Virus record (IMG/VR): IMGVR_UViG_3300044972_000729
Coordinates: 1-32,762 of that record
Direction: 5' to 3' (one strand)
DNA from: a virus
DNA length: 32,762 nt
Positions 8,935 through 29,770 of this stretch are shown piece by piece. Each line of letters opens with the position of its first letter. The first letter of the stretch is position 1. The notes beneath the pieces were generated by a model. The model saw only the letters and a list, made by a program, of their open reading frames with translations. It made no database searches and was not told where the DNA came from. A program made the position numbers and the translations under genes.

Positions 8935-8940
8935 GTTTTA

Positions 8941-8995
8941 GGATAGCAACAGCAAACAATCCAATTTCACTTTTAATGAAAAAAAGATGCTATCC
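8941..8995 (+). ncRNA. Family E element E1
   Basis: Terminal stem GGATAGCA/TGCTATCC (8 bp), CAGCAA box nine bases from the stem start, and tail TGTTTTAT. The interior is a perfect 5-bp hairpin TTTCA/TGAAA with seven-base loop CTTTTAA, identical to a tRNA-Lys(TTT) anticodon loop. D- and T-arms are absent. It sits in a normal tRNA slot between tRNA-Gln and tRNA-Glu. Confidence 0.75.
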
Positions 8996-9006
8996 TGTTT
9001 TATTAC

Positions 9007-10009: not shown

Positions 10010-10023
10010 AATGTTAAGTTTTA

Positions 10024-10132
10024 GGATAGGTTCAGCAAATAATTTAACTACTTCTCTTGAAAAGAAAAGGAACGGTTCGACTCCGTAGCCGCAAGGTTTA
10101 GTGTAACGGTAGCACTATGTTAAAAACTATCC
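10024..10132 (+). ncRNA. Family E element E2, with permuted tRNA arms
   Basis: Terminal stem GGATAG/CTATCC, CAGCAA box at the fixed position, CCTGTTTTAT tail, and a second stem TTTAAC/GTTAAA inside it. The interior then shows, in order, an anticodon-like hairpin TTCT-CTTGAAA-AGAA (Ser TGA loop), a T-arm ACGG-TTCGACT-CCGT and a D-arm AGTG-TAACGGTAG-CACT. The order anticodon, T, D is a circular permutation of a normal tRNA. Confidence 0.7.
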
Positions 10133-10144
10133 TGTTTTATTAAT

Positions 10145-11172: not shown

Positions 11173-11222
11173 GCCCCGGTGGTGAAATTGGTAAACACCT
11201 TAAAATCACTTTTTAGGTGTTT
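11173..11222 (+). pseudogene. tRNA-Leu 5' remnant ending in a hairpin
   Basis: GCCCCGG-TG-GTG-AAATTGGTAAA-CAC is a normal Leu-like acceptor 5' strand plus D-arm. From there the sequence becomes a hairpin AAACACCT/AGGTGTTT (11193-11200 with 11215-11222) and no anticodon stem, T-arm or acceptor 3' strand follows. The 3' half seems to have been replaced when the HNH gene entered. Confidence 0.65.
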
Positions 11223-11237
11223 AGCATAAATATATGT

Positions 11238-11693
11238 ATGATATTAATAGAAACATACATTACAAATACCCAAGCGCAAAGACAATCTCATCTAAAACTA
11301 GATGAGCCTTGTATAGAACGAGGTGGTAACAGCGAAAATTATAGAGGTTTGCTTGCTCATTTACTTGATACAAGTATCCCTAAAGGTCAGCGCATCCATC
11401 TATGCCATGCATGTCACAACAGTAAATGCGGTAATCCTCATCATTTATATTGGGGAACGTCTAAAGAAAATACTGCTGACAGAATGACTAATGGTGGCAG
11501 AACTGCTTGGCAAAACACTGTTGAAAAATACGGAGAAGAAAAAGCTAGACAGCTTATGTCAGAGCATAAAGTAAATAATAAAGGTGGTTCCGGTAATAAA
11601 GGAAAACCTAAAAGTGAAGAACATAAAGCAAATATTGCTGCCAACCGTAAAGGTGGGCGAAAGAAAAAAGCTCTGGTAACCGAATTGGTATAG
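11238..11693 (+). CDS. HNH homing endonuclease invading a tRNA gene
   Basis: A 151-residue HNH protein from the ATG at 11238; a GTG at 11217 is an alternative start. HLCHACHNSKCGNPHHLYWGT (residues 54-74) gives the paired Cys/His zinc ligands and the HNH-type CxNPxHL segment of phage NUMOD-type homing nucleases; a basic KGKPKSEEHKANIAANRKGG tail is typical of their DNA-binding NUMOD3 repeats. It should nick or cut DNA near tRNA genes and promote its own spread. Its last eight codons (ALVTELV plus stop) are made of the first 24 bases of the tRNA-Leu(AAG) gene, and a decapitated tRNA-Leu lies just upstream. Confidence 0.85.
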   Translation: MILIETYITNTQAQRQSHLKLDEPCIERGGNSENYRGLLAHLLDTSIPKGQRIHLCHACHNSKCGNPHHLYWGTSKENTADRMTNGGRTAWQNTVEKYGEEKARQLMSEHKVNNKGGSGNKGKPKSEEHKANIAANRKGGRKKKALVTELV

Positions 11694-11746: not shown

Positions 11747-11753
11747 AGTTTTA

Positions 11754-11825
11754 GGATTCATACAGCAAATAACTTCGGTTAATTCGCTCCAAGCGATATT
11801 TGGTTCAAACCCAAAAAGCGAATCC
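11754..11825 (+). ncRNA. Family E element E3, tRNA-Trp-like
   Basis: Terminal stem GGATTC/GAATCC, CAGCAAATAA box at the fixed position, CCTGTTTTAT tail. The interior has a short hairpin TCG-CTCCAAG-CGA, showing a CCA (Trp) anticodon position, and a full T-arm TTTGG-TTCAAAC-CCAAA. Compared with a tRNA only the D-arm is missing. Confidence 0.72.
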
Positions 11826-11836
11826 TGTTTTATAAT

Positions 11837-11919: not shown

Positions 11920-12040
11920 CCTGTCTTAGTGTAGTGGTTAGCACACGTATAAAAGGTCATCCTGTCAAGGATGCAGTCAGCAATATACAACATTCCATGT
12001 CAAGGACGAAACGGTGGTTCGATTCCATCAGACGGGGCCA
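11920..12040 (+). tRNA. tRNA-Asp(GTC) with internal insertion
   Basis: Acceptor CCTGTCT/AGACGGG, D-arm GTG..CAC, T-arm GGTGG-TTCGATT-CCATC and GCCA are all normal, but 121 bases separate the ends. Two anticodon-like hairpins both show GTC: CATCC-TGTCAA-GGATG (11958-11973) and TCC-ATGTCAA-GGA (11994-12006). The first lies in a segment bounded by GTATA/TATAC (11947-11988) that looks like an insertion. It may be a duplicated arm, an intron-like insert, or a defective gene. Confidence 0.65.
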
Positions 12041-14951: not shown

Positions 14952-15039
14952 CCATATAAAAACACATTTAGGCCGGAGTTGATCGAAGGTTCCACGGGTG
15001 GGCTACGCCGGAATGCGTAGGTAGTGTGTTTCTATATGG
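14952..15039 (+). ncRNA. Family P hairpin element P3
   Basis: Terminal stem CCATATA.AAACACA / TGTGTTT.TATATGG with one A-C mismatch; the interior holds CCGG/CCGG and a GGTTCCACGGG loop. It carries the conserved family signature AAACACA on the 5' side and TAGTGTGTTT on the 3' side. Confidence 0.7.
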
Positions 15040-15186: not shown

Positions 15187-15274
15187 CATATTGAAACACA
15201 CTATGACCTTTGTATCAGGGATGATTTAACTTTGGGATACGTCCCGGGGGAAGATGTTAGTGTGTTTCAATATG
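15187..15274 (+). ncRNA. Family P hairpin element P4
   Basis: Perfect 17-bp terminal inverted repeat, 15187-15203 with 15258-15274, built from CATATTG plus AAACACACTA and its complement. The interior can form GTATC/GATAC and GGGA/TCCC, which cross and could make a small pseudoknot. Confidence 0.75.
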
Positions 15275-17742: not shown

Positions 17743-17817
17743 TATGCAAACACATTGATTTCCCAGCGATATCGGATAAATCTCCGTAGCTATCGGCGTT
17801 AGTGTGTTTACATATGG
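17740..17817 (+). ncRNA. Family P hairpin element P7
   Basis: Terminal stem CCATATG.AAACACATT / AGTGTGTTT.CATATGG with one mismatch. Interior: CGATA/TATCG enclosing CGGA/TCCG. It overlaps the encoded CCA of tRNA-Lys(TTT) by three bases. Confidence 0.73.
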
Positions 17818-17820
17818 TAA

Positions 17821-17925
17821 CTATAGATAAACACATTAAGATGATGGTTCGAATCGATCCCAATGACCATAACGTATGTGCTGGTAGGTAGCTTAATGGT
17901 AAGAGCGTAGTGTGTTTTTCTATGG
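17821..17925 (+). ncRNA. Family P element P8, permuted tRNA-like
   Basis: An 18-bp terminal stem with one T-T mismatch, ending in AAACACATTA/TAGTGTGTTT. The interior reads first a T-arm-like GATGG-TTCGAAT-CGATC, then CCCAATGACCA resembling an acceptor 3' strand with CCA, a CATA-ACG-TATG hairpin, and then a D-arm GCTTAATGGTAAGAGC. T-arm before D-arm is the order of a circularly permuted tRNA, with the long stem in the place of the anticodon stem. Confidence 0.7.
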
Positions 17926-18030: not shown

Positions 18031-18036
18031 AGTTAA

Positions 18037-18097
18037 GGATCGGTTCAGCAAATAATTATACATTTGACTTCTAATCAAAACCGTAAAAAAACGATCC
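18037..18097 (+). ncRNA. Family E element E4
   Basis: Terminal stem GGATCG/CGATCC, CAGCAAATAA box, tail TGTTATAT. The interior is TTTGA-CTTCTAA-TCAAA, a perfect anticodon-arm copy with the TCT (Arg) loop found in the real tRNA at 14481. Confidence 0.75.
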
Positions 18098-18105
18098 TGT
18101 TATAT

Positions 18106-18401: not shown

Positions 18402-18407
18402 GGTTAA

Positions 18408-18461
18408 GGATGCTTCCAGCAAATAAAAAAACTTTTTTAAGTCAAAAGCAAAACAGCATCC
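18408..18461 (+). ncRNA. Family E element E5
   Basis: Terminal stem GGATGC/GCATCC, CAGCAAATAA box at nine bases, tail TGTTAAAT. The interior is A/T-rich with a weaker hairpin ACTT..AAGT; the loop approximates a Lys anticodon but the register is not clean. Confidence 0.7.
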
Positions 18462-18489
18462 TGTTAAATATGCGTGAATAATTAAATAT

Positions 18490-19338: not shown

Positions 19339-19557
19339 ATGACTGAATCTAGAGCGAGATATACTAGCCAAGAGGCAGCAGAGATGATTGGTAATCGTTT
19401 TGAAATGGTTCTAATCGCAACCGCAAGGGTTAGAGAACTCAGGCGAGGGCACAAGTCTAAACTAGCTAAACCCACAACTGCAGGACCAATCGTTACTGCA
19501 TTGATGGAAATTGAAAAGGGCCTAGTTGGCCGCGAGTACCTTAAACAAGTACGATAA
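19339..19557 (+). CDS. rpoZ: RNA polymerase omega-like subunit
   Basis: A 72-residue protein whose central NRFEMVLIATARVRELRRG matches the signature helix of bacterial omega (NRFELVLLAARRARQL in typical RpoZ), followed by a GPIVTALMEIEKGLV segment that matches the PTVVALREIAEGLI region. Length also fits omega. Omega wraps the beta' C-terminus and stabilises RNA polymerase, so a phage copy could replace or modify the host subunit. The ATG at 19339 follows AGGAGATAGT; an in-frame upstream ATG at 19255 lies inside tRNA-Gly and is rejected. It sits between the tRNA array and the Ro-like gene. Confidence 0.8.
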   Translation: MTESRARYTSQEAAEMIGNRFEMVLIATARVRELRRGHKSKLAKPTTAGPIVTALMEIEKGLVGREYLKQVR

Positions 19558-19565
19558 TAATTCTA

Positions 19566-19794
19566 GGGATGAATACAGCATTTAACCACTTACTTAATTG
19601 CATAGAAAGCGGTCGTAGGACAGTAGCAATACTTCTAGGTAACTAGACGCTCAAGGAATGTATGACAGATTGGAAAGACAATCTATGTGTTCACTACAGA
19701 AAGCCGAGTGTGAATAGTCAACATGAATTGTTGATAGGGTCTGAGTGTTATAATTGGTCAGACCAGAAAATAAATAAATTGGCACAATCATCCC
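19566..19794 (+). ncRNA. Long family E element E8
   Basis: Stem GGGATGA/TCATCCC over 229 bases, CAGCAT box nine bases after the GGAT, and CGTTTA after the 3' strand: a long version of family E with a diverged tail. Interior hairpins include GATTG/CAATC, TCAACA-TGAAT-TGTTGA and a perfect GGTCTGA/TCAGACC. No ORF. Confidence 0.55.
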
Positions 19795-19810
19795 GTTTAC
19801 CCAAAATGTA

Positions 19811-19839
19811 TTTACAACAACAAGAAACTAAGCTATAAT
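19811..19839 (+). promoter_or_regulatory. Promoter upstream of E6, E7 and the Ro-like gene
   Basis: TTTACA 19811-19816, 17 bases, TATAAT 19834-19839. The transcript would carry two family E elements and then the TROVE gene. Confidence 0.75.
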
Positions 19840-19862
19840 AAACGCTTAGACAATAAGATTTA

Positions 19863-19971
19863 GGATCGGTTCAGCAACACCATAAAACTATGGCCGATAG
19901 TCGGCGATAACTTCAAGACTATCAACGTGAGTTTGGATTTCTCACTTGAAACAAAAAGTACAAAACGATCC
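19863..19971 (+). ncRNA. Family E element E6 (upstream of Ro-like gene)
   Basis: Stem GGATCG/CGATCC, CAGCAA box at nine bases, tail TGTTAAAT. The 109-base unit contains CCATA/TATGG, a perfect 7-bp GATAGTC/GACTATC and GTGAG/CTCAC. It is one of two family members between the promoter and the TROVE start codon. Confidence 0.75.
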
Positions 19972-19982
19972 TGTTAAATTTA

Positions 19983-20039
19983 GGTTAACATCCGCAACAA
20001 TAATTTGGCGTCTGCTAGGACATTAAACTAGTATTAACC
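19983..20039 (+). ncRNA. Family E element E7 (leader of Ro-like gene)
   Basis: Stem GGTTAA/TTAACC, where the otherwise constant GGAT/ATCC is changed on both sides, box CCGCAA at the same offset, tail TGTTAAAA. It contains CTAG/CTAG. The element ends 26 bases before the TROVE start, just ahead of the ribosome site. Confidence 0.72.
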
Positions 20040-20065
20040 TGTTAAAAACTAAGAAAGGAAACAGT

Positions 20066-21481
20066 ATGCAATTCGCAACAGCAATCGGTAATCAAGAAGC
20101 CCGTACTACAAACGGTATGAAGGCTCGTCAGTCAACAGCTAACGCATGTGTTGACCTGTTCTACAACATCGGCGCAAGTCGTGGTAAGAACATCATCCCT
20201 CAATTCACCGCAGCTTACGTTGAGAATGCCGATCTGGCATTGCGTATTGTTCAATGGGCACGTGATGTCCGCGGTGGTGCTGGTGAACGGGAAATCTTCC
20301 GTCAAGTATTGACTCATTTGGAAAAGACTAACCCAGCTGATGCTGCTCGTCTTATCACTAAGGTGCCTGAACTTGGTAGGTTTGATGACTTGCTAGTTTT
20401 TGAATCTAAAGAAATGAAGGCTACTGCATACGCATTACTAGGTGACTACTTGCGTCAACGTAATGGTCTTGCTGCTAAGTGGACTCCACGTAAGGGCAAG
20501 ATCGCGGCTGAAATTCGTGAATTCTTCGGTATGAGCCCAAAGCAATATCGTAAGACTTTAGTTGGTATGACAACCGTTGTTGAATCACAAATGTGTGCAA
20601 ATGACTGGGATAACATCAACTACAGTCACGTTCCAAGTGTAGCGCATAGTCGTTACAAGAAGGCTTTCGGTCGTCACGGTACAACTTATGCCGAGTACAT
20701 CACTAAGTTGGTTAAGGGCGAAGCAGGTGTGAAGATCAATGCTAACGCAATCTTCCCGCATGATGTACTGAAGGGTCGTATCAGTGGATACGGTACAACC
20801 AAGTGGTCTGCTACTGAATTGGGTGCTATTGAAGCACAATGGGCTGCATTGCCTAACTATGTTGGTGACGCTAGCGTGTTGCCTCTAGTTGACGTTAGTG
20901 GCTCTATGACTAGCAAGGCAGGCAAAAAGGGTGACACCACTTGTTTGGAAATTGCAGTTTCATTGGGATTGTACTTTGCTGACAAGAACAAGGGTAAGTT
21001 CAAGGACTGCTTCTTGACTTTCAGCGACAATACCAAGTTGGTGAATCTTAAGGGTTCTATCAACCAAAAGATTGATCAAATGATCAGTTCAGATTGGGAA
21101 ATGAGTACAAACCTACATGGTGCGTTCAATCAAATCCTTAGCACTGCGGTTAAGAACAAGGTATCACAAGCAGAAATGCCTGAGACACTGATGATTTTCT
21201 CTGACATGCAATTTAACGCTTGCGTTAAGTATGATGACAGTGCAATGGAAATGATCGCACGTAAGTACAGTGAAGCAGGATACGAATTGCCTAAGGTAGT
21301 TTTCTGGAACTTGAATGCTAGCGGAAACGCTCCAGTTGAGTTTGACAAGAGTGGAACCGCTCTTGTATCAGGATTCTCCCCAGCGATTGCTGCTAGTGTA
21401 TTGGGTGCAGACCCAGATGCATTCTCGCCTGAAGCAATTATGCTTACGGCCGTGATGAATAGTCGCTACGATTTGATGTAA
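20066..21481 (+). CDS. Ro60/Rsr-like TROVE-vWA RNA-binding protein
   Basis: A 471-residue protein with the Ro60 layout: an N-terminal HEAT-repeat (TROVE) ring, with RIVQWARDVRGGAGEREIFR (60-79) matching the conserved RDxRGGxGER stretch, then a von Willebrand A domain with MIDAS motif DVSGSM (Asp276, Ser278, Ser280) and a later FSDMQF. Ro60 proteins bind misfolded RNA ends in the ring and Y RNA on its outside; bacterial Rsr works with exonucleases in RNA decay and rRNA maturation. Start with AAAGGAAAC upstream. Two family E RNAs lie in its leader and a terminator follows, so it is a single-gene unit. The DUF2828 branch of the same fold is an alternative family label. Confidence 0.88.
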   Translation: MQFATAIGNQEARTTNGMKARQSTANACVDLFYNIGASRGKNIIPQFTAAYVENADLALRIVQWARDVRGGAGEREIFRQVLTHLEKTNPADAARLITKVPELGRFDDLLVFESKEMKATAYALLGDYLRQRNGLAAKWTPRKGKIAAEIREFFGMSPKQYRKTLVGMTTVVESQMCANDWDNINYSHVPSVAHSRYKKAFGRHGTTYAEYITKLVKGEAGVKINANAIFPHDVLKGRISGYGTTKWSATELGAIEAQWAALPNYVGDASVLPLVDVSGSMTSKAGKKGDTTCLEIAVSLGLYFADKNKGKFKDCFLTFSDNTKLVNLKGSINQKIDQMISSDWEMSTNLHGAFNQILSTAVKNKVSQAEMPETLMIFSDMQFNACVKYDDSAMEMIARKYSEAGYELPKVVFWNLNASGNAPVEFDKSGTALVSGFSPAIAASVLGADPDAFSPEAIMLTAVMNSRYDLM

Positions 21482-22904: not shown

Positions 22905-23126
22905 ATGAACGAACGAATTCAAGAACTAATCAAACAATGTACATCATGGAGTGAAGGGTCAACCTGGACCAGCAATGAGGAATTTGATAAAGAGAAGTTC
23001 GCCGAGTTGATTGTTAGGGAATGTATGGATATATGTTATCGAACTGATACTGAATATGAGGGTCATAAAGTTAAATCAACGGTAATTGCCAGCAAAGTTG
23101 CTGAACATTTCGGAGTTGAAGAATGA
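22905..23126 (+). CDS. MNERI-family paralogue 1
   Basis: 73 residues in the three-part plan of this family: start MNERIQELI, core EKFAELIVREC at about 30-40, end EHFGVEE. The segments between core and ends are unlike those of the other members. I do not know the function; the pattern suggests a small helical protein with a variable middle. The GGAG inside its FGVEE codons serves as ribosome site for the next gene, whose ATG overlaps its stop. Confidence 0.85.
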   Translation: MNERIQELIKQCTSWSEGSTWTSNEEFDKEKFAELIVRECMDICYRTDTEYEGHKVKSTVIASKVAEHFGVEE

Positions 23127-23266
23127 AAACGTGGTTTGTATATTATGAGAGTCCTCGTGGATTGTCTGGCATGAGTACAGTAGATGCTCTCACCAAAGAT
23201 GAAGTGTCATCTATTTTTCTCTGCCATCGCCCAGGATACCATATTGAATTGATTACAGACAGATAA
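23123..23266 (+). CDS. Small hypothetical protein (47 aa)
   Basis: Begins in the ATGA overlap with paralogue 1, using that gene's tail as ribosome site. 47 residues (MKTWFVYYESPRGLSGMS... HRPGYHIELITDR) with a beta-rich look; no family recognised. Followed by a stranded copy of the paralogue tail (AAATCGGAGTTGAAGAATG) that starts the next gene. Confidence 0.7.
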   Translation: MKTWFVYYESPRGLSGMSTVDALTKDEVSSIFLCHRPGYHIELITDR

Positions 23267-23284
23267 CTAAATCGGAGTTGAAGA

Positions 23285-23512
23285 ATGAGTTGTACACATC
23301 AAAGAGAACACTCACAGTGGGTCACTAGAGATTACTTTGGTGAAGAAATCGACGGAGAGTGGAAATACACTACAGAATCGTCTTATGTAGACATTGACTT
23401 ACACAGATATAAGTGTACAATGTGTAATGAAGTATTTTATTATTCAGGCAGGGCTAGAGACTACTATGAAAAAGGTATCAAGACCGAATGGATTAAAGGA
23501 TTAAACAAATGA
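23285..23512 (+). CDS. Small putative zinc-binding protein
   Basis: 75 residues with Cys3-x-His5 and His9 near the start and CTMC (about 49-52) later, which could make a small zinc site. Its ribosome site is a relic of the paralogue tail at 23270-23284, with no paralogue gene attached to it, showing that the tail moves as a translation-start cassette. Overlaps the next gene by ATGA. Confidence 0.75.
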   Translation: MSCTHQREHSQWVTRDYFGEEIDGEWKYTTESSYVDIDLHRYKCTMCNEVFYYSGRARDYYEKGIKTEWIKGLNK

Positions 23513-23751
23513 ACGAACGAATTAAAGAACTTTATTCTGATGCAGCATTGTATGCATTTAATCAACGATTTATCCCAGGCGTTGTACGAGAATTACAAGA
23601 AGTAATTACAGAAAAGTTCGCCGAGTTGATTGTCAAAGAGTGCAAAGAGAACTTTGCTAAAGTTTGGTATGAGCAAGGAGTGGATTGTCGTGGCGCAGAA
23701 CTTGATAAGTTTATGGCACGGTTTGAACAACATTTCGGAGTAAAAGAATGA
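23509..23751 (+). CDS. MNERI-family paralogue 2
   Basis: 80 residues, MNERIKELY start, core EKFAELIVKEC at 35-45, end QHFGVKE. The region after the core (ENFAKVWYEQGVDCRGAELDKFMARF) is specific to this copy. Overlaps both neighbours by four bases. Confidence 0.85.
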   Translation: MNERIKELYSDAALYAFNQRFIPGVVRELQEVITEKFAELIVKECKENFAKVWYEQGVDCRGAELDKFMARFEQHFGVKE

Positions 23752-23987
23752 ACGAACGAATTGATGAATTGTGGCAAGAGGCAGTAGACGCCACGTGGAT
23801 TGATAATTCTAAGTCTACTCACGAAAAGTTCGCCGAGTTGATTGTGAAGCAATGTACTGACATTCTAATGATACCAGAGCATGTTATGAATCATCATCAA
23901 GAACTTACTGACTACTATCGTGGTTGGGTCGATGGCAACTTGCTAGGTATTGAACATATTAAAAAACATTTTGGAGTTGAAGAATGA
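23748..23987 (+). CDS. MNERI-family paralogue 3
   Basis: 79 residues, MNERIDELW start, core EKFAELIVKQC, end KHFGVEE. The post-core part contains HHQELTDYYRGWVDGNLLGIEHI, resembling segments that recur in paralogue 7 and the gene at 25095 (GYENGL, YGWNAA), a hint of exchange between copies. Confidence 0.85.
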   Translation: MNERIDELWQEAVDATWIDNSKSTHEKFAELIVKQCTDILMIPEHVMNHHQELTDYYRGWVDGNLLGIEHIKKHFGVEE

Positions 23988-24103
23988 ACGAAGGTGAACG
24001 AGCAGGCCGCCGGGCTCAGGTGTTACTCTACATGGTATTGTTTGCTGTATGGTTCAATGTTGCTTGCATTGTAGTCTGGATTTATATGGAGTGGTTTTTA
24101 TGA
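23984..24103 (+). CDS. Tiny membrane protein (39 aa)
   Basis: ATGA start overlap with paralogue 3 and ATGA stop overlap with paralogue 4. It opens with MNEGE, close to the family's MNERI, then a basic stretch and one hydrophobic helix (LLYMVLFAVWFNVACIVVWIY). It may be a paralogue start fused to a membrane segment. Function unknown. Confidence 0.65.
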   Translation: MNEGERAGRRAQVLLYMVLFAVWFNVACIVVWIYMEWFL

Positions 24104-24285
24104 ACGAACGAATTAGAGAACTTGCCCGTAGAGTGGTCGGAAAACATCGCAATGACGTTAGCTCTATCAGCCTTTTTGATGAACAGATTGAGAAGTTCGC
24201 CGAGTTGATTGTGCGGGAATGTTGCGATCAGGTAAGAATGGTTGATGCTATGGAAATTAAAAGACATTTCGGAGTTGAAGAATGA
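24100..24285 (+). CDS. MNERI-family paralogue 4
   Basis: 61 residues, the shortest copy: MNERIRELA start, core EKFAELIVREC, short post-core segment, end RHFGVEE. An in-frame ATG at 24049 lies inside the previous gene and is rejected. Confidence 0.83.
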   Translation: MNERIRELARRVVGKHRNDVSSISLFDEQIEKFAELIVRECCDQVRMVDAMEIKRHFGVEE

Positions 24286-24515
24286 ACGAACGAATTAAAC
24301 TACTTGCTATACAGGCAAAATATGATGCTCGGAGCAATCGGCATTATCTTGAGAGAGTACATAACAGAGAAATTACTCTTGAAGAATATCAAGAAATGTA
24401 TGACCAAAAGTTCGCCGAGTTGATTGTTCGGGAGTGTATAGACGTACACGTAGATGATTATGGTGTTGACATTATCGGTGATGTGTTGAAGGAACATTTC
24501 GGAGTTGAAGAATGA
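24282..24515 (+). CDS. MNERI-family paralogue 5
   Basis: 77 residues, MNERIKLLA start, core QKFAELIVREC, end EHFGVEE. The pre-core segment is longer than in copy 4, with a charged helix. ATGA overlaps at both ends. Confidence 0.85.
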   Translation: MNERIKLLAIQAKYDARSNRHYLERVHNREITLEEYQEMYDQKFAELIVRECIDVHVDDYGVDIIGDVLKEHFGVEE

Positions 24516-24781
24516 ACGAACGAATTAAAGAACTTTATAATCAAGCTGACAAGTTTGCCAAAGAAAATCGCACACAAACCATTAGTGGTCCAGGCAACAA
24601 CTACTTTGAACTGTTTCACGAAAAGTTCGCCGAGTTGATTGTTCGGGAATGTGCTAAACTGATTGATAACAAAGTAACGATTACTGCCGCTGAGACATAT
24701 GATGAAGTTTTTGTAGCCAAGTATGATACCAGAGAACTTAGTGCAAAACAGATTAAAGAACATTTCGGAGTTGAAGAATGA
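24512..24781 (+). CDS. MNERI-family paralogue 6
   Basis: 89 residues, MNERIKELY start, core EKFAELIVREC, end EHFGVEE. The post-core segment (AKLIDNKVTITAAETYDEVFVAKY) looks beta-rich and is unique to this copy. Confidence 0.85.
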   Translation: MNERIKELYNQADKFAKENRTQTISGPGNNYFELFHEKFAELIVRECAKLIDNKVTITAAETYDEVFVAKYDTRELSAKQIKEHFGVEE

Positions 24782-25098
24782 CACCAGCACAAATTAAAGA
24801 CTTGCTTGAGGAAGCTGGGCTTGTCAGCTACGGCGAGGACACGGGGTTTTATAACATACCAGTCCCAGCTTTTCTTAGCCGGATTGATAGATTAGCCGAA
24901 CTGATTGTGAGAGATTGTGTTCCTCTTAGAACTGAACTAACACAGTTTGACAGCACAGACCCATATGGGGATGGATACGAAAACGGCCTTAAAGATATGG
25001 CAGAACTTATGGTGATTATGATGCAGACGGTCATGCCATGGTTTGTAGTGAGAGAGATATTAAAAAGTTTGCCAGAACATTTCGGAGTTAAAGAATGA
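24778..25098 (+). CDS. Divergent MNERI-family paralogue 7
   Basis: 106 residues; the start has drifted to MTPAQIKDLLEEAG and the core to DRLAELIVRDC, but the end EHFGVKE and ATGA junctions remain. An extra MADELMVIMM-like helix (KDMAELMVIMMQTVMPWF) is inserted. It is the longest family member in the window. Confidence 0.8.
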   Translation: MTPAQIKDLLEEAGLVSYGEDTGFYNIPVPAFLSRIDRLAELIVRDCVPLRTELTQFDSTDPYGDGYENGLKDMAELMVIMMQTVMPWFVVREILKSLPEHFGVKE

Positions 25099-25286
25099 AA
25101 AAAGATTGGGACACCCAAGAACAATCAGACATGTTTGACAAGTTTCTTGACGAAACATCGGATTCAAGGTCGCAAACTTGGAAAGGTTGGCACGCCCGCC
25201 GTGCGCACGGTTACGATGAACTAGAATGGGAAGCATTTCAGTATGGATGGAATGCCGCAAAGGTATGTTTCGGAGTTGAGAAATGA
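25095..25286 (+). CDS. Unrelated small protein with grafted FGVEK tail
   Basis: 63 residues without the KFAELIVREC core. The body (TWKGWHARRAHGYDELEWEAFQYGWNAAK) matches the common phage pattern of a repeated W/A helical motif, but it ends in CFGVEK, coded by the same TTTCGGAGTTGA tail that ends the MNERI genes. The tail appears to have been added to an unrelated body. Confidence 0.75.
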   Translation: MKKDWDTQEQSDMFDKFLDETSDSRSQTWKGWHARRAHGYDELEWEAFQYGWNAAKVCFGVEK

Positions 25287-25471
25287 ACGAACGAATTAAA
25301 AAACTCAAAGATCAATGCTGGGTAGAGAGGCGTTGGAATAATGATATGTGGATCGAAAAGCATATTGATCTGGAAAAGTTCGCCGAGTTGATTGTTCGGG
25401 AATGTACGTTACAATGTCAGCACAATGATGACATGGATCTGATTGAAAAACATTTCGGAGTTGACATTTAA
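25283..25471 (+). CDS. MNERI-family paralogue 8
   Basis: 62 residues, MNERIKKLK start, core EKFAELIVREC, end KHFGVDI. The usual tail has changed so that CGGAGTTGACATTTAA now supplies the -35 box of the promoter for the RNA ligase gene. Confidence 0.83.
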   Translation: MNERIKKLKDQCWVERRWNNDMWIEKHIDLEKFAELIVRECTLQCQHNDDMDLIEKHFGVDI

Positions 25472-25489
25472 TCCAAACAGTGATATAAT
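25461..25489 (+). promoter_or_regulatory. Promoter of the RNA ligase gene
   Basis: TTGACA 25461-25466 lies inside the last codons of paralogue 8; TATAAT 25484-25489 follows after 17 bases. Confidence 0.88.
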
Positions 25490-25516
25490 ACACACTTAAA
25501 CAAGTAGAGAAATAGC

Positions 25517-26434
25517 ATGAACCAAACTGATTTGAAGGAATTTGTATTAGCTAACCCAAAGTTGGTTAGTATGAAGCCTGCTGGTGATGGTATATTTGTA
25601 TTGAAGTATCGCAAGAGTGTGTTCTATGATAACTTGTGGAATGATTTCTTAGAAGAATGTCGCGGTACCATCGTTGATGTTGACTTCAATGTGGTGTCAC
25701 GCCCATTCACAAAAATCTACAACTACGGTGTTGAAGCTAAGGCACCTGTGTTAGCAGACAATACTTTGGTTACTGCATACCGTAAAGTAAACGGGTTCAT
25801 GGTGGCAATGACTTGGTATAACAACGATATCCTAGTGTCTACTACTGGTTCAACTCAAAACGACTATGTAGACTATGCTAAGGAAATGATGTTGAAGCAT
25901 CAGTGCTGGGCTGATTGGCGAATGGAAATTCTTGCAGCTAAAGGAATGACCTTGATGTTTGAATGCTGCCACCCAAGTGACCCACACATTGTTCCTGAAG
26001 ATGCAGGCATGTACTTTCTAGGTCACCGTGAAAACTCATGGGACGCAAAAGTAGAGATGTACGGCGTAAGTGTGTCCAACCGGGTTAAAGACTATGCACT
26101 GGCATGTTTGAAGTGCAACTATGCAGAATCCTATGTTTTGCCTTTGAGTGAGTTGGTAGCAAAGTCAAAGCAGGTTCGACATGAAGGTTTTGTTTTCTAC
26201 ACTGAAGACGGGGTTTCTGCAAAGATCAAGAGTCCATACTACTTGACTTCAAAGTGGGTTGCCCGCAATCCACGTACCGATAAGTTAGTAAACATGGAAG
26301 CTGATATCAAGAAGAACTTGGATGAAGAATATTATCCGCTGGTTGACGCTATCCGTGCTAACATTGTTGAGTACACTGCTATGAATGAACAAGAACGTTT
26401 AGCATGGGTTCGTAACTATTTGGAGACTGTATGA
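25517..26434 (+). CDS. rnlA: T4 RNA ligase 1-like RNA ligase
   Basis: A 305-residue protein with the nucleotidyltransferase motifs of the Rnl1 family: motif I KVNG (Lys90, the expected adenylated residue), an upstream RG in EECRGTIVD as in Rnl1, motif III-like LMFECCHP (Glu149), motif IV EGFVF (Glu223) and motif V KIK (Lys236, Lys238). Rnl1 joins 5'-phosphate and 3'-hydroxyl RNA ends using ATP; in phage T4 it reseals host tRNA cut in the anticodon loop. It has its own consensus promoter and a 5' leader of about 20 bases. Its partner kinase-like gene is at 27823. Confidence 0.9.
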   Translation: MNQTDLKEFVLANPKLVSMKPAGDGIFVLKYRKSVFYDNLWNDFLEECRGTIVDVDFNVVSRPFTKIYNYGVEAKAPVLADNTLVTAYRKVNGFMVAMTWYNNDILVSTTGSTQNDYVDYAKEMMLKHQCWADWRMEILAAKGMTLMFECCHPSDPHIVPEDAGMYFLGHRENSWDAKVEMYGVSVSNRVKDYALACLKCNYAESYVLPLSELVAKSKQVRHEGFVFYTEDGVSAKIKSPYYLTSKWVARNPRTDKLVNMEADIKKNLDEEYYPLVDAIRANIVEYTAMNEQERLAWVRNYLETV

Positions 26435-26826
26435 AGGAAACTGCATGGAGTCATCTGCCCAATGCGGCACATATTGATCGTGTATTAGCATCAGTAAAGG
26501 CACATCCTGCGGAATGGCGTTCGGCGTGGGACGCGGCTTGGGATGCGGTTTGGGACGCGGCTTGGGATGCGGCAGTGAATGCGGCTCGGCATGCAAGTCG
26601 TTTTGTGGCTTATAATGCAGCCACGGGCCACGCAGGCCATACAGCAGGGGATGCGTCTTATGGTGCAATGTTAGCACTCGTTGCATATGATGACTGTGCC
26701 CAGTACCTTGATATGAGCAGTGATCAGTTGAAGGTATGGGCAATACTCAGCGAAAACCCAGCAGCCGTACTATTGTTACCAGCAGTAATTGCTTTTGAGA
26801 AAATTGCTGAATTGGAGATGGCATGA
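26431..26826 (+). CDS. Protein with AWDA repeats
   Basis: 131 residues. Residues 32-48 repeat a four-residue unit (AWDA, AWDA, VWDA, AWDA), coded by a GC-rich tandem DNA repeat around 26526-26570. It is followed by Ala-rich helices. The repeat should form a regular helix with Trp on one face; proteins of this kind occur in several phages without known function. Starts in an ATGA overlap with the ligase, so the two are coupled. Confidence 0.75.
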   Translation: MKETAWSHLPNAAHIDRVLASVKAHPAEWRSAWDAAWDAVWDAAWDAAVNAARHASRFVAYNAATGHAGHTAGDASYGAMLALVAYDDCAQYLDMSSDQLKVWAILSENPAAVLLLPAVIAFEKIAELEMA

Positions 26827-27032
26827 AAGAAAGAATTCAAGAACTAATGAAACAAGCTGGTACAGATGTCAGCGGTAAATGGATGGGCGTGGACCACGCA
26901 ACAAAATTTGCCGAGTTGATTGTCGAAGAATGTCTTGACATTTTGGATGATGAAGACGATGGTAGCCATGATGGTCGCAGTGTTCGCATTGCCGCAATAA
27001 GGATTAAGAAACTTTTTGGAGTTGAAGAATGA
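26823..27032 (+). CDS. MNERI-family paralogue 9
   Basis: 69 residues, MKERIQELM start, core TKFAELIVEEC, end KLFGVEE. It has an acidic post-core stretch (DILDDEDDGSHD). Separated from the main block by the ligase and AWDA genes but still with the ATGA/tail junctions. Confidence 0.83.
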   Translation: MKERIQELMKQAGTDVSGKWMGVDHATKFAELIVEECLDILDDEDDGSHDGRSVRIAAIRIKKLFGVEE

Positions 27033-27337
27033 AATGCGATAAATGTGGATATGATGACAACGGTACCGGCGACACCGCCCATGTTTGTGGACCAATCAAA
27101 CTAAAGTTAAAGCATGTTGAATTGCACGAAGAACATGACCGCTTTGAAGAACTGATGGCCCAAGATGAAAGTCACTTGCCAGTCTCTGAGCAAAGTTTAG
27201 TATTTCGGTTGCGTAAACGTGCAGAGATTCGCAGACAGATTCAAGGTCGCAAAAGTGTATCAGAAGGTAAACCAGATCGTATTGCTGACTTACTGGAAGA
27301 AGCAGCAAACGAGCTTGACAAATTAAAGAAAAGGTGA
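27029..27337 (+). CDS. Small zinc-ribbon/coiled-coil protein
   Basis: 102 residues opening MKCDKCGYDDNGTGDTAHVC: CxxC plus a later Cys with a His make a likely zinc knuckle. The rest is charged helix, probably coiled coil (ADLLEEAANELDKLKKR). Translation starts from the tail of paralogue 9. No function known. Confidence 0.75.
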   Translation: MKCDKCGYDDNGTGDTAHVCGPIKLKLKHVELHEEHDRFEELMAQDESHLPVSEQSLVFRLRKRAEIRRQIQGRKSVSEGKPDRIADLLEEAANELDKLKKR

Positions 27338-27341
27338 TATA

Positions 27342-27821
27342 ATGTTTATTCAGAATTGCGCTGCAACTGATATCAGTAGTGGCATGTGGTATAAGGATCC
27401 GGGACAGAATAGTATGTTGATTAGCATTACTGATCCGGCAGGTTGGAAGCCTGAAGCCAAGCACAACTTCAAAGAGCGACACAATTTTGAGTTCCTTGAC
27501 ATTGAAGCTAATGACTATTCAATGGAAGAAGATTGGAAAGTTAGTGATGCACAGGCAATTGAACTTGTTCGTTTGCTACAACATGCAAAGGACAATGACA
27601 TGAATGTTATTGTACATTGCACTGCTGGAATTTGTCGTAGTGGAGCCGTGACCGAAGTTGGCGTTATGATGGGCTTTGAGGATACTCATGCAGTACGTCA
27701 GCCTAACTTAATGGTCAAGCACAAGATGATGAAGGTTCTTGGATGGACCTATGATGCTAACGAAAAGACTGAGCCAAACAACTGGCGTGGCATGAAATTA
27801 GGTTGGGAAAGAGATATTTAA
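27342..27821 (+). CDS. Cys-dependent phosphatase (DSP/PTP-like)
   Basis: A 159-residue protein with the signature HCTAGICRSG (His92, Cys93, Arg99), the HCx5R P-loop of protein tyrosine and dual-specificity phosphatases, followed by a helix as expected. Such enzymes dephosphorylate phosphoproteins, but some small members act on RNA 5' ends (family knowledge). Located between a zinc-ribbon gene and the kinase-like gene, which makes an RNA end-processing role worth testing. An AAAAGGTG ribosome site precedes the ATG. Confidence 0.85.
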   Translation: MFIQNCAATDISSGMWYKDPGQNSMLISITDPAGWKPEAKHNFKERHNFEFLDIEANDYSMEEDWKVSDAQAIELVRLLQHAKDNDMNVIVHCTAGICRSGAVTEVGVMMGFEDTHAVRQPNLMVKHKMMKVLGWTYDANEKTEPNNWRGMKLGWERDI

Positions 27822-27822
27822 T

Positions 27823-28284
27823 ATGGCAAAGTGTTATCAATTAATTGGAGTACCAGGCTCAGGTAAAAGTACTTGGATTGCAGCACAAGACTGGCCCCTT
27901 TATTGTGTTCTGGTAAGCACTGATAATCATGTTGAAGATTATGCTACTTTGATGGGCAAGACATACAACGAGGTTTTCAAAGAACACATGCCACGAGCAG
28001 TGGAACTAATGGCTCAGGATGTAGTAGCTGCACGAACTGCGGGCAAAGACATTATCTGGGATCAAACTTCTACTACAGTTAAGAGCCGTAAGAAGAAGTT
28101 TAATATGTTGCCTGACTATGAACATATCGCTGTGGTGTTTCGCACTCCTGAAAGTGAAGAACTAGCAAAGCGTTTAGCAAGTCGTCCTGGTAAGAACATT
28201 CCCGACTATGTTATACGTACTATGATTGATGGATTTGAAATGCCTACTCTAGCAGAAGGGTTTATTGAAATCATTCATGTATAA
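27823..28284 (+). CDS. Polynucleotide-kinase-like P-loop protein
   Basis: A 153-residue P-loop kinase (AAA_33 type) with Walker A GVPGSGKST (9-17, Lys15), DNH near residue 44 as in T4 Pnk-like kinases (which have a catalytic Asp there), and a lid Arg region LAKRLASRPGKNIPDYVI. This matches the kinase half of T4 polynucleotide kinase without its phosphatase half. With the Rnl1-like ligase it could rebuild broken RNA; 3' end healing might come from a separate phosphatase. Starts one base after the phosphatase stop. A terminator follows. Confidence 0.82.
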   Translation: MAKCYQLIGVPGSGKSTWIAAQDWPLYCVLVSTDNHVEDYATLMGKTYNEVFKEHMPRAVELMAQDVVAARTAGKDIIWDQTSTTVKSRKKKFNMLPDYEHIAVVFRTPESEELAKRLASRPGKNIPDYVIRTMIDGFEMPTLAEGFIEIIHV

Positions 28285-28298
28285 TTATATGTAAATCA

Positions 28299-28326
28299 AA
28301 ATAGGACCTTCGGGTCCTATTCTTTT
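28299..28326 (+). terminator. Intrinsic terminator
   Basis: AATAGGACC-TTCG-GGTCCTATT followed by CTTTT; ends the ligase-to-kinase transcript. Confidence 0.9.
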
Positions 28327-28371
28327 GGATAAAATTTATGTTTTTATAATATACGTATAAATAGCAGTATC

Positions 28372-28842
28372 ATGTTTCAATTCATCACAGACCTTTCACA
28401 CACATTATTAAGTTTCATCAAAGACGATCCTGTTCGTCCTGAAATATCTACTGATTTTAGAGTTAGCGACGGCAGGGTTGTTGCTGCACTAACTGATGAA
28501 GAACATCAACCAGAGGCAATGGTATGTGTTAGCTTCCATGACTTTGTTCCTGAAGGTCTAGAAGATTTGAAGAAAACTGCTCAAGTGCCCACAACGGCCA
28601 TATTTTATACCATTTGGAGTTACAAAAGCGGCAAAGGTGCAGAATTGCTTATACAAGCTGTGAAGGGAATTAAAGCACAATATCCTAGCGTTACTAGATT
28701 TGTGACATTAAGCCCCAAGACTAACTTAGCCCGCAGGTTTCACTTAAAGAACGGTGCTATCGTTTTCAGAGAAAATATAGATACTACAAACTATGAGTAT
28801 CTGACAGAAATCCCTAAAGAAATCCCAGAAAACACTGATTGA
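28372..28842 (+). CDS. GNAT-fold acyltransferase-like protein
   Basis: A 156-residue protein. Central YKSGKGAELLIQAVKGIK and LSPKTNLARRFHLKNGA resemble the CoA-binding helix and C-terminal strand of GNAT-fold proteins, and the latter recalls the RFHLxNGA stretch of malonyl-CoA decarboxylase. It may be a small acyltransferase; the acceptor is unknown. Start chosen at the first ATG after a TATAAT-like stretch (28345-28350) whose -35 partner is weak. Its stop codon lies inside the next promoter's TTGACA. Confidence 0.6.
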   Translation: MFQFITDLSHTLLSFIKDDPVRPEISTDFRVSDGRVVAALTDEEHQPEAMVCVSFHDFVPEGLEDLKKTAQVPTTAIFYTIWSYKSGKGAELLIQAVKGIKAQYPSVTRFVTLSPKTNLARRFHLKNGAIVFRENIDTTNYEYLTEIPKEIPENTD

Positions 28843-28867
28843 CAATAAATGGTTTTGGGTGTATACT
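28839..28867 (+). promoter_or_regulatory. Promoter overlapping a stop codon
   Basis: TTGACA 28839-28844 includes the TGA stop of the upstream gene; TATACT 28862-28867 follows after 17 bases starting ATAAATGG. Confidence 0.85.
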
Positions 28868-28878
28868 ATGGGTATACT

Positions 28879-29400
28879 ATGGGTATGCTGAAAGAACACT
28901 TAAAATCTCGTCATTTAGATTTAGAACTTCACAAGCCAGTGATTGATGAAGCAGAGGGTGTCGCAACTTTTTACCTGTGGAATCTTAGCGGACAGCTGGT
29001 AGGATACCAGCAATATCGTCCCTCAGGGGAGAAAAAACCACAGAATAATCCCAAGCTGGGCAAGTATTTCACATACCGAAATCAGCCTACACAGACTGTT
29101 TGGGGAGTAGAAAGTCTCTATTTAAGCCCCTCAGTCGTGTTTGTGTGCGAAGGGGTGTTTGATGCGGCCCGACTCACTGAGCGTGGATTTAGTGCGTTGG
29201 CCGTGCTATCTAACAACCCGAACAGCGACCTACGCAACTGGTTAACCTGTCTGAATCGTCGGGTTGTCGCAGTCTGTGACAATGATGATGCAGGACGCAA
29301 ACTGTCCAAGTTTGGAAACTGTTGCGTTTTTACAACAGATAAAGACCTCGGGGATAGCGACCCGGAATTTGTCACATCCTTACTGGAAACTTACGGTTGA
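28879..29400 (+). CDS. Stand-alone Toprim-domain protein
   Basis: About 173 residues from the ATG at 28879 (an ATG at 28885 is equally possible; one at 28849 lies within the promoter). C-terminal VFVCEGVFDA gives the Toprim Glu, and AVCDNDDAGRK the DxDxxG metal site, as in DnaG-type primases and phage primase-helicases; the N-terminal YQQYRP and KYFTYRN segments match the part that precedes Toprim in those enzymes. No zinc finger or helicase is attached, so it may be a primase fragment, a nuclease or a regulator. No ribosome site is visible; the mRNA is probably leaderless. Confidence 0.8.
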   Translation: MGMLKEHLKSRHLDLELHKPVIDEAEGVATFYLWNLSGQLVGYQQYRPSGEKKPQNNPKLGKYFTYRNQPTQTVWGVESLYLSPSVVFVCEGVFDAARLTERGFSALAVLSNNPNSDLRNWLTCLNRRVVAVCDNDDAGRKLSKFGNCCVFTTDKDLGDSDPEFVTSLLETYG

Positions 29401-29425
29401 CATTAAATGGATTTGGGTATATAAT
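29397..29425 (+). promoter_or_regulatory. Promoter of the GIY-YIG-like gene
   Basis: TTGACA 29397-29402 contains the stop codon of the Toprim gene; TATAAT 29420-29425 after 17 bases. The ATG begins seven bases after the -10 box. Confidence 0.88.
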
Positions 29426-29431
29426 ACACTT

Positions 29432-29770
29432 ATGAACTTGAAAATCACCCGTAAGCGTAGAACTGATCGTAATCAAGTGTTATACTTTATCCAAGATACA
29501 GTAACATTTGAATCCTACGTTGGTTTGACTGCTGTATGTTTCGCAGGAAATGTGCGTAAGACATTGACCCGTCGTATGCAAAAGCATATGCAACGGGCCT
29601 TGACTGAGCAGAAGAATTGGGGTTTGTCTTGTGCATTGCGTGAACGTGGTGCCGAGCGTTTTGTATTCGGTGTGATTGAAATTGTGCGTGGTAAGCGTCC
29701 TGCACATGTTCGTGAGACTGAATTGATTAACACATTGCGTCCAGCATTGAACACTTTCGGAGTTAAGTAA
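29432..29770 (+). CDS. GIY-YIG nuclease-like protein, leaderless
   Basis: 112 residues. VLYFIQDTVTFESYVGLTA has the paired strands of the GIY-YIG domain (with YFI/YVG in place of GIY/YIG), followed by RRMQKHMQRAL and ETELINTLRPALNTFG, typical of the family's Arg-rich helix and Glu-containing C-terminus. Activity is uncertain because the tyrosine motifs are altered. Its end TFGVK is coded by the MNERI tail (TTTCGGAGTTAAGTAATGA) and drives the next gene. The longer frame from 29264 overlaps the Toprim gene and is rejected. Confidence 0.72.
   Translation: MNLKITRKRRTDRNQVLYFIQDTVTFESYVGLTAVCFAGNVRKTLTRRMQKHMQRALTEQKNWGLSCALRERGAERFVFGVIEIVRGKRPAHVRETELINTLRPALNTFGVK

What the first reader, a model, noticed from the sequence alone, without database searches (positions are those of the whole stretch)
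19811..21481. Candidate phage Y RNAs in front of a Ro60-like gene
The TROVE/vWA gene at 20066 is preceded, in order, by a promoter, element E6 and element E7. Established knowledge: in Deinococcus and other bacteria the Ro60 orthologue Rsr is encoded beside Y RNAs, whose paired 5' and 3' ends bind Ro and whose other half imitates tRNA. Family E elements have paired ends with constant bases plus interiors that often look like tRNA arms. The inference is that family E is the Y RNA set of this phage Ro protein, with extra copies spread through the tRNA array.
Basis: partly seen in the sequence, partly recalled or inferred. Interest (0 to 1): 0.93.

Follow-up and report, generated by a model that had tools for sequence, protein, structure and literature searches.

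The report
Phage Ro protein's tRNA-mimic Y RNAs
A virus of bacteria carries a relative of the human Ro60 protein together with a family of small RNAs that share one docking stem but display different imitations of tRNA parts, and the same pairing appears in many unrelated phages, so it is probably a widespread and little-studied viral RNA machine.

Summary
Eight elements with one geometry (7-bp end stem, 3 nt, C[A/C]GCA, variable interior, closing strand, NGTT) lie on the + strand. Three stand in tandem before a Ro60-fold gene (DUF2828/DUF7788; no PF05731 TROVE match) and five lie in the tRNA array; a ninth copy is built into a tRNA-like gene. In 404 elements chosen by flanks alone, 384 have all four free stem positions complementary (shuffled mean 43.6). 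61 of 62 Ro relatives carry the module just upstream. Of contigs of 60 kb or more found by the RNA alone, 13 of 15 encode Ro, against 1 clear case in 14 tRNA-selected controls. The module also flanks Ro-like genes in 17 of 23 diverse, mostly cultured phages (reverse strand 4 of 23). Many interiors are tRNA mimics: anticodon-like arms (7-nt loop, U33), circularly permuted tRNAs, T arms. Best reading: phage Y RNAs, a new variant of a known kind. They are more numerous and more modular than described bacterial Y RNAs, and add anticodon-arm mimics and a permuted docking module inside tRNA genes. Ro binding, and whether they tether or decoy, is untested.

The parts
20066..21481 (+). Ro60-like protein (HEAT-type ring plus vWA domain; DUF2828/DUF7788), 471 aa
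   Evidence: AF2 pLDDT 89.5; Foldseek top 11 all Ro60/Rsr/TROVE; VIA Z 21.2 to 1yvr; MIDAS residues D276, S278, S280, T348, D380 invariant in 19 proteins aligned
19811..19839 (+). promoter-like site before E6 (TTTACA-17-TATAAT)
   Evidence: number of sites in the region no more than in shuffles
19567..19793 (+). long element (227 nt): GGATGA-ATA-CAGCA ... TCATCC-CGTT
   Evidence: same class before Ro in many relatives
19862..19972 (+). E6 (111 nt): AGGATCG-GTT-CAGCAA ... CGATCCT-GTT, with a T-arm-like hairpin
19982..20040 (+). E7 (59 nt): AGGTTAA-CAT-CCGCAA ... TTAACCT-GTT; ends 25 nt before the Ro start codon
   Evidence: an element ends 18-52 nt before the gene in 61 of 62 relatives
8940..8996 (+). 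E1 (57 nt): interior is an anticodon-like arm TTTCA-CTTTTAA-TGAAA (UUU)
10023..10133 (+). E2 (111 nt): interior is a circularly permuted tRNA mimic (anticodon-like arm, T arm, short acceptor-like stem closed by GCAA, D arm)
11753..11826 (+). E3 (74 nt): interior has a T-arm mimic TTTGG-TTCAAAC-CCAAA and two hairpins
11920..12040 (+). tRNA-Asp(GUC)-like gene with the docking module, circularly permuted, as an extra arm between D arm and anticodon arm (CATCCT-GTCA-AGGATG-CAGT-CAGCAA); not reported by ARAGORN
   Evidence: fold; coordinates; not
18036..18098 (+). E4 (63 nt): anticodon-like arm TTTGA-CTTCTAA-TCAAA (UCU) read by eye; the single-sequence fold does not show it
18407..18462 (+). E5 (56 nt): end stem clear, interior arm weak

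Best explanation
Family E is the Y RNA set of this phage's Ro60-like protein. The two ends of each RNA pair into a 7-bp helix that, with the unpaired NNN-CAGCAA next to it, forms a constant docking module for the Ro ring (inferred). The interior is an exchangeable effector module that is often a tRNA mimic: an anticodon arm, a T arm, a permuted tRNA whose acceptor stem is closed by a loop, or a whole tRNA. Three RNAs precede the Ro gene (the last close to its ribosome-binding site, so possibly also an autoregulatory leader); others are excised from the tRNA array. Shown here: structure by covariation, linkage to Ro, tRNA mimicry, Ro fold by prediction. Inferred: binding by Ro, release as stable RNAs, and the task, which I think most likely is to hold tRNA-handling enzymes (processing, repair, decay or anticodon-cutting) at Ro or away from real tRNAs.
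For: 7 of 7 stem+CCTGTT sites in the window are E elements, none on the other strand. In 80 viral loci plus the window: 243 forward and 4 reverse hits, 0 in base shuffles of 30 of them. Flank-only selection: 384 of 404 elements have all four free stem positions Watson-Crick, partner-shuffled mean 43.6, maximum 58 in 500; after removing similar sequences 149 of 163, shuffled 12.6, maximum 22. Ro to E 61 of 62, reverse-strand control 11 of 62. E to Ro 13 of 15 contigs of 60 kb or more; tRNA-selected controls 1 of 14 clear, the same contig alone carrying E; Fisher p 2e-5, or 1.5e-4 with the weak hit counted. 23 diverse phage loci: 45 forward, 5 reverse, 6 shuffled; 17 loci forward-positive, 4 reverse-positive. 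23 further loci: 37 forward, 5 reverse; 18 and 4 loci. Short interiors: 7-nt-loop hairpin in 156 of 232 (shuffled 22.0), with U33 in 136 (5.1); non-redundant 39 of 67 (5.9), U33 33 (1.7). Longer ones: T arm plus closed hairpin in 59 of 238 (0.8); non-redundant 36 of 129 (0.35). Ro fold.
Against: No binding data. 118 of 238 longer elements have no T arm, including many of the 145-167 and 227-249 nt elements, whose interiors I cannot explain; 28 of 67 non-redundant short ones lack the 7-nt-loop arm. Six of 23 phage loci are negative by the CAGCAA rule, and several of the 17 positives (Erwinia, Sinorhizobium, and the CAGCAA hit of DLP6) look like chance. Two E-bearing contigs of 60 kb or more lack Ro (G028, G043), and 18 of all 50 do; they may be fragments. 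The most abundant noncoding RNA of Listeria phage CKA15, a Y RNA candidate of its authors, holds no module. Four loci with PF05731 hits in bacteria show no module above background. RtcB in 1 of 17 and RNA ligase in 4 of 17 large E-bearing contigs, so a repair partner is not constant.
Confidence: 0.83

Rival explanations
1. E elements are cis-acting leader structures: Ro (or another protein) binds the stem before its own gene to regulate it, and copies elsewhere are strays or processing signals of the tRNA array.
For: The nearest element ends 18-52 nt before Ro in 61 loci. Read by eye: in KVP40 the 3' strand contains the Ro start codon, in DLP6 it abuts the GGAG, in MS02 it ends 3 nt before ATG.
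Against: Most copies are not leaders: five in the window lie 1.6-11 kb upstream between tRNAs, and in Chaser, L27 and the Staphylococcus phage they lie downstream of Ro. Diverse tRNA-mimic interiors are not needed for a leader.
Confidence: 0.1
2. The RNAs are decoys or sensors for host anticodon nucleases: the anticodon arms are cut or bound in place of phage tRNAs, with Ro as holder (compatible with the best explanation; it names the task).
For: Anticodon-like triplets in the 7-nt loops: UUU 28, UGU 18, UCU 11, UGA 11, GUA 8, GGA 7; a large tRNA set (37 in the window); [quoted passage not shown]
Against: Half of the longer elements have no T arm (118 of 238). AT-rich phages could favour AU-rich arms anyway. 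No nuclease was tested.
Confidence: 0.3
3. E elements are a mobile or selfish repeat that spreads through phage tRNA arrays, with Ro linkage due to shared arrays.
For: Dispersed copies in the tRNA array.
Against: The stem letters differ between copies yet stay paired. Interiors differ widely but the module is constant. None of the 13 tRNA-bearing control contigs without a clear Ro carries the pattern. The module sits at Ro in LAh_9 and MS02, where no tRNA is annotated in the stretch fetched.
Confidence: 0.03
4. Chance inverted repeats in AT-rich DNA.
For: None found.
Against: Strand asymmetry, shuffles and covariation.
Confidence: 0.005

Closest known systems
Bacterial Y RNAs YrlA / DrY with Rsr (Ro sixty related)
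   Same: Encoded beside a Ro60-fold protein; 5' and 3' ends paired in a basal stem; separate tRNA-like module with D, T and acceptor arms (PMC8394870, passages); permuted tRNA interior closed at the acceptor end in 59 of 238 longer elements
   Different: Many copies per genome (8 plus 1 here); module signature stem-NNN-CAGCAA; anticodon-arm-only mimics, pseudoknot-like and 145-249 nt interiors; copies inside tRNA genes; partner is a DUF2828/DUF7788 protein, not PF05731
Vertebrate Y RNAs and Ro60
   Same: Ro60 fold of the partner; end-paired RNA; vertebrate Ro site is a 7-bp helix with a bulged C and a 3-nt bulge (PMC4726728, passages), here a 7-bp helix followed by 3 nt and CAGCAA
   Different: No non-tRNA Rfam family matches at gathering; interiors are tRNA-like
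Putative Y RNAs of Listeria phage CKA15 (PMC12282133)
   Same: Ro-like CKA15_055 downstream of tRNAs and of three strongly transcribed noncoding regions; authors propose Y RNAs (passages and section 8 read)
   Different: The one region whose position I saw printed (26,236-26,727) lacks the module; three modules lie at 25,289-25,553, directly before the gene, and are not named in the text I saw
Ro60/TROVE proteins noted in jumbo phages (PMC7824862, PMC7765460) and Thermus phage phiLo Ro60 (PDB 9l5y)
   Same: Phage Ro-type proteins are known: a ROT/TROVE protein in a small subset of jumbo phages (passage), a Ro60-related protein in vB_VhaM_pir03 (passages); 9l5y aligns with VIA Z 15.7 over 397 residues
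   Different: The passages name no partner RNA sequence; 9l5y is 17% identical; no paper on it found in the library

Membership tests
Y RNA (Ro60-associated noncoding RNA) | Encoded next to a Ro60 orthologue | tested here: met
   61 of 62 relatives; 17 of 23 diverse phage loci, reverse strand 4 of 23; E-seeded contigs 13 of 15 of 60 kb or more
Y RNA (Ro60-associated noncoding RNA) | 5' and 3' ends base-pair into a basal stem | tested here: met
   384 of 404 fully paired against 43.6 shuffled; non-redundant 149 of 163 against 12.6; transcript ends themselves are not known
Y RNA (Ro60-associated noncoding RNA) | Conserved Ro-binding sequence/bulge known from vertebrate or bacterial Y RNAs | tested here: inconclusive
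   A different constant motif (NNN-CAGCAA) is present; vertebrate site described in PMC4726728; the bacterial paper (PMC4201824) is not held; four PF05731 loci lack CAGCAA modules above background
Y RNA (Ro60-associated noncoding RNA) | tRNA-like module in at least one Y RNA per species (recalled from Chen 2014) | tested here: met
   window E2 and the tRNA-like gene at 11920-12040; 59 of 238 longer elements permuted-tRNA-like; not checked for each phage
Y RNA (Ro60-associated noncoding RNA) | Bound by Ro60 | not testable with these tools
   no binding data; linkage only
Ro60 / Rsr protein | HEAT-repeat ring plus vWA domain with MIDAS | tested here: met
   AF2 pLDDT 89.5; Z 21.2 to 1yvr over 399 residues; MIDAS residues invariant
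Ro60 / Rsr protein | Sequence match to Pfam TROVE PF05731 | tested here: not met
   0 matches in the window; matches PF11443 and PF25043 instead; so 'Ro60-fold, DUF2828 type', not 'TROVE family' by sequence
Known Rfam RNA family | Score over the gathering threshold for a non-tRNA family | tested here: not met
   only tRNA in the window and in 8 phage loci; nothing relevant at E up to 5 in 19500-20100

The most novel reading that the evidence does not exclude
Phage Ro60 is the hub of a decoy library. One docking module (stem-NNN-CAGCAA) is attached, in two circular permutations, to a set of tRNA pieces: anticodon arms that mostly resemble tRNAs reading A- and U-starting codons, T arms, permuted tRNAs and complete tRNA-like genes with the module as an extra arm. 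The particles soak up or report host anticodon nucleases and other tRNA-attacking defences, the E element before the Ro gene tunes Ro to the amount of RNA, and in some phages the particle may enter with the virion, since a Ro-like protein was found in purified Listeria phage CKA15 particles (PMC12282133, Table 1 passage).
Probability: 0.27. Interest if true: 0.93.

Novelty: new variant of a known kind. Interest (0 to 1): 0.82.

Why it matters
Ro60 and Y RNAs are autoantigen partners whose job is still debated. Here is a signature found beside Ro-like genes in phages of cyanobacteria, mycobacteria, Firmicutes, Campylobacter and Proteobacteria, with hundreds of natural sequence variants and swappable tRNA-mimic modules. 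It turns a vague annotation (DUF2828, 'RNA-binding protein'; relatives in 681 of 50,697 phage records) into a testable RNP with named RNAs in phages that are already in culture, and it links Ro60 to the tRNA arms race between phages and hosts.

Tried and rejected
Rfam: only tRNA at gathering, nothing in three cellular TROVE loci; weak chance hits in 19500-20100. phmmer of the protein alone against PDB: 0 hits; a profile gave only weak hits, four of five of them Ro60/TROVE (1yvp E 0.046; the fifth a ribosomal protein), so the fold was predicted. RNA-repair linkage tested and found patchy: RtcB 1 of 17, RNA ligase 4 of 17 large E-bearing contigs, 16 of which have Ro. Cellular TROVE loci: PF05731 in 8 of 398 genomes, several by the later part of the model only; four loci read, no CAGCAA module above background; two of them (L355, L356) hold T-arm-like stretches near or upstream of the gene by eye. 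I first noted that the three cka15 modules were the strongly transcribed region of PMC12282133; checking coordinates showed that the printed region is another one, so that claim is withdrawn. The class 'T arm last' (49) mixes tRNA-order elements with 110-170 nt elements whose hairpin only resembles a T arm; I do not count it as whole tRNAs; whole-tRNA interiors were seen by eye in some 88-99 nt elements. In distant phages 9-nt loops were as enriched as 7-nt loops (22 against 21 of 52; shuffled 7.7 and 7.3), so anticodon arms there are less clear. The helix next to CAGCAA (UAC/GUA versus NGC/GCN) is seen in 18 of 69 arms examined: suggestive only. The type II scan has no shuffled control. DUF2828+phage literature search: 0 papers. 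Literature was searched; Chen 2014, Chen 2013 and two Wolin reviews are not held, so what they say about phage Y RNAs is recalled. 'Distinct' counts include near-identical sequences; one search repeats the main ones without redundancy.
Full report
WHAT WAS CLAIMED.

THE ELEMENTS ARE REAL. A search of the window for CCTGTT preceded by the exact complement of an upstream 6-mer gave seven hits, all on the + strand, all with GCAA just after the 5' strand; the reverse strand gave none. They are E1 8940-8996, E2 10023-10133, E3 11753-11826, E4 18036-18098, E5 18407-18462, E6 19862-19972 and E7 19982-20040. A wider rule (CC-N-GTT) adds a 227-nt element at 19567-19793. The geometry is constant: [A/G]GGNNNN, three nucleotides, C[A/C]GCA (mostly CAGCAA), a variable interior, the complement, then GTT. 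In 80 viral loci with relatives of the protein plus the window, the rule found 243 forward and 4 reverse hits in 1.09 Mb, and none in base shuffles of 30 of the sources.

THE STEM COVARIES. To avoid circularity I chose elements by flanks only (AGG-N4-N3-CAGCAA and the first CCTGTT 35-200 nt on) and then asked whether the four free positions pair. 384 of 404 distinct elements are fully Watson-Crick; with partners shuffled among elements the mean is 43.6 and the maximum of 500 shuffles is 58. Positions 5 and 6 use all four Watson-Crick pair types. Many of the 404 are near-identical; in a non-redundant 163, 149 pair fully against 12.6 shuffled, maximum 22. This is a structure kept by compensatory change.

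THE PROTEIN IS A RO60-FOLD PROTEIN. Pfam calls DUF7788 and DUF2828; PF05731 TROVE does not match. AlphaFold2 on an alignment of 33 sequences gave pLDDT 89.5 and pTM 0.89. Foldseek's first 11 hits in the PDB are all Ro60, Rsr or TROVE structures at E 1e-8 to 5e-6; VIA gives Z 21.2 to 1yvr over 399 residues. The metal-site residues of the vWA domain (D276, S278, S280, T348, D380) are invariant in 19 aligned phage homologues, this one included. By tblastn, 681 of 50,697 phage records carry a relative.

RNA AND PROTEIN GO TOGETHER. From protein to RNA: of 62 distinct Ro loci with at least 400 nt upstream (73 of 80 given; short and duplicate ones dropped), 61 have the module within 800 nt upstream by a somewhat looser rule; the reverse strand gives 11 of 62. 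The nearest element ends 18-52 nt before the gene. The one negative, L019, has an element further upstream. Of 50 of those contigs tested, 32 encode Ro; by size, 21 of 25 of 40 kb or more, 13 of 15 of 60 kb or more, 8 of 9 of 100 kb or more. Control: 14 contigs of 59 kb or more chosen by a tRNA pattern. One encodes a clear relative (G465) and one has a weak vWA-only hit (G463, 29% over residues 274-449); the E pattern occurs in exactly one of the 14, G465. Fisher p is 2e-5, or 1.5e-4 if G463 is counted. Of 17 contigs of 100 kb or more that I listed, all carry the pattern: nine had been found by E (G028 among them lacks Ro) and eight by Ro.

THE MODULE IS NOT LOCAL TO THIS PHAGE GROUP. In 23 loci around Ro-like genes of diverse phages (21 from isolates, 2 from metagenomes), a stem of 7 or more pairs, 2-4 nt, CAGCAA and a closing strand with a G beside it was found 45 times forward, 5 times reverse and 6 times in shuffles; 17 of 23 loci are positive forward and 4 of 23 reverse. 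Clear sets stand beside Ro in Synechococcus phage BUCT-ZZ01, Listeria phage cka15, Mycobacterium phage Chaser, Escherichia phage L27, Enterococcus phage vB_OCPT_Bill, Staphylococcus phage S-CoN_Ph9, Bacillus phage PJN02, Rhizobium phage RHph_I1_18, Aeromonas phage LAh_9 and Vibrio phage MS02; Campylobacter phage Los1 and KVP40 have one or two. Pseudomonas phage Milchi and the leader of Stenotrophomonas phage DLP6 use CAGCAC. Negative by the CAGCAA rule: Ci1, Milchi, Fnu1, Ochrobactrum OC, PHA46, phiWae14. The positive calls for Erwinia SNUABM_19, Sinorhizobium phiM7 and the CAGCAA hit in DLP6 look like chance. In 23 further loci from bacterial assemblies and viral contigs: 37 forward, 5 reverse; 18 loci forward, 4 reverse.

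THE INTERIORS OFTEN IMITATE tRNA. In 232 distinct short elements, a 5-bp hairpin with a 7-nt loop occurs in 156 (shuffled 22.0); loops of 4-6 and 8-10 nt occur in 22-50 (shuffled 18-25). In 136 elements such a loop has U at position 2 (U33; shuffled 5.1). The commonest loops are CUUUUAA 28, CUUGUAA 17, CUUCUAA 11, CUGUAAA 8, CUUGAAA 6. In a non-redundant 67 the 7-nt loop occurs in 39 (5.9) and U33 in 33 (1.7), other sizes in 6-17. These are anticodon-arm mimics, here of the UUU type (E1) and, by eye, the UCU type (E4). In 238 elements of 85-340 nt, a T arm occurs in 120 (shuffled 7.6). In 59 (shuffled 0.8) it is followed at once by a closed hairpin, most often of 7 bp (30 of 59), and in 53 of these a D-like arm follows: a circularly permuted tRNA whose acceptor stem is capped by a loop. 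Non-redundant: T arm 75 of 129 (3.1), with closed hairpin 36 (0.35). Mycobacterium phage Chaser has the same arrangement. 118 of 238 have no T arm, including many elements of the 145-167 and 227-249 nt classes that often stand just before Ro.

A SECOND PERMUTATION. In some tRNA-like genes the module is inserted the other way round: 3' strand, short loop with G at its start, 5' strand, 3-4 nt, C[A/T]GCA, mostly as an extra arm between D arm and anticodon arm. A scan gave 164 such hairpins in 4.3 Mb held (both strands, no shuffled control), 29 with a T arm downstream; of 24 distinct ones shown, I accept 18 by eye, among them two in BUCT-ZZ01, one in Citrobacter phage Ci1 and one in L001 that is also this window's at 11920-12040. 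Its fold shows acceptor, D, extra, anticodon and T arms; ARAGORN did not report it. That one module appears both as open ends around a tRNA mimic and as a closed arm inside a tRNA is independent support for a docking unit.

LEADERS. By eye, in KVP40 the closing strand contains the Ro start codon, in DLP6 it abuts the GGAG, and in MS02 it ends 3 nt before ATG. This suggests that Ro controls its own synthesis (inference).

HOW IT LIKELY WORKS. Established (passages read): bacterial Y RNA has a basal stem that holds Rsr and a tRNA-like domain with D, T and acceptor arms that is modified like tRNA; it tethers Rsr to PNPase (PMC8394870). In the rtcBA operon study the authors suggested that the tRNA-like domain could competitively inhibit an anticodon nuclease (PMC7790460). 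Inference: the phage RNAs dock on Ro by the constant module and present exchangeable tRNA parts, so that Ro either brings tRNA-handling enzymes to damaged RNA or keeps such enzymes off the phage's many tRNAs (37 in this window). RNA-ligase genes are not constant companions, which speaks somewhat against a fixed repair pathway.

KNOWN AND NEW. Y RNAs near Ro60 in phages were proposed in 2014 (Chen et al., recalled; PMC12282133 cites it for mycobacteriophages). Ro-type proteins in jumbo phages are noted in PMC7824862 and PMC7765460 (passages). PMC12282133 (passages and section 8 read) proposes Y RNAs in Listeria phage CKA15, but the only region whose position I saw printed (26,236-26,727) lacks the module, while three modules lie at 25,289-25,553 directly before the Ro-like gene. 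I found no paper in the held library that describes the CAGCAA module, anticodon-arm Y RNAs or tRNA-embedded modules; most subscription papers are not held. I therefore file it as a new variant of a known kind.

Noticed in passing
window 14961-15030, 15195-15266, 17749-17808, 17830-17916: A second family of end-paired elements (AAACACA ... TGTGTTT, with TATGG after it), at least one with a permuted tRNA interior but no CAGCAA; perhaps tRNA mimics for another partner. A loose regular expression gave 364 hits in 117 loci, counting both strands and without a control.
   Followed up: partly
window 22984-30415: A repeated family of small ORFs with shared start, middle and end motifs (9-13 copies by motif; start MNERI, end HFGVEE in reading frame).
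   Followed up: no
G021:C1:30190-32564 and G025:C1:114278-116808: The Ro gene is split into two pieces about 1 kb apart in two contigs, perhaps by an intron or inserted gene.
   Followed up: no
window about 11172-11693: What looks like the 5' half of a tRNA-Leu runs into an ORF at 11217-11693 that looks like an HNH-type gene by eye.
   Followed up: no
window 2289-2588 and 3833-4132: A 300-nt direct repeat at 79% identity: two related coding genes in the left part.
   Followed up: no
Listeria phage cka15, CKA15_055 (L233:3959-5479): The Ro-like protein was detected in purified phage particles (20 peptides, 57.1% coverage) in PMC12282133 (passage); a gene annotated 'tRNA splicing ligase' lies 1.3 kb downstream.
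   Followed up: partly
L089, L146, L181 and others: A short-element class with GCTA...GGTTGTC-TAGC-GACAA that could form an H-type pseudoknot instead of an anticodon arm (16 of 232 by motif).
   Followed up: partly
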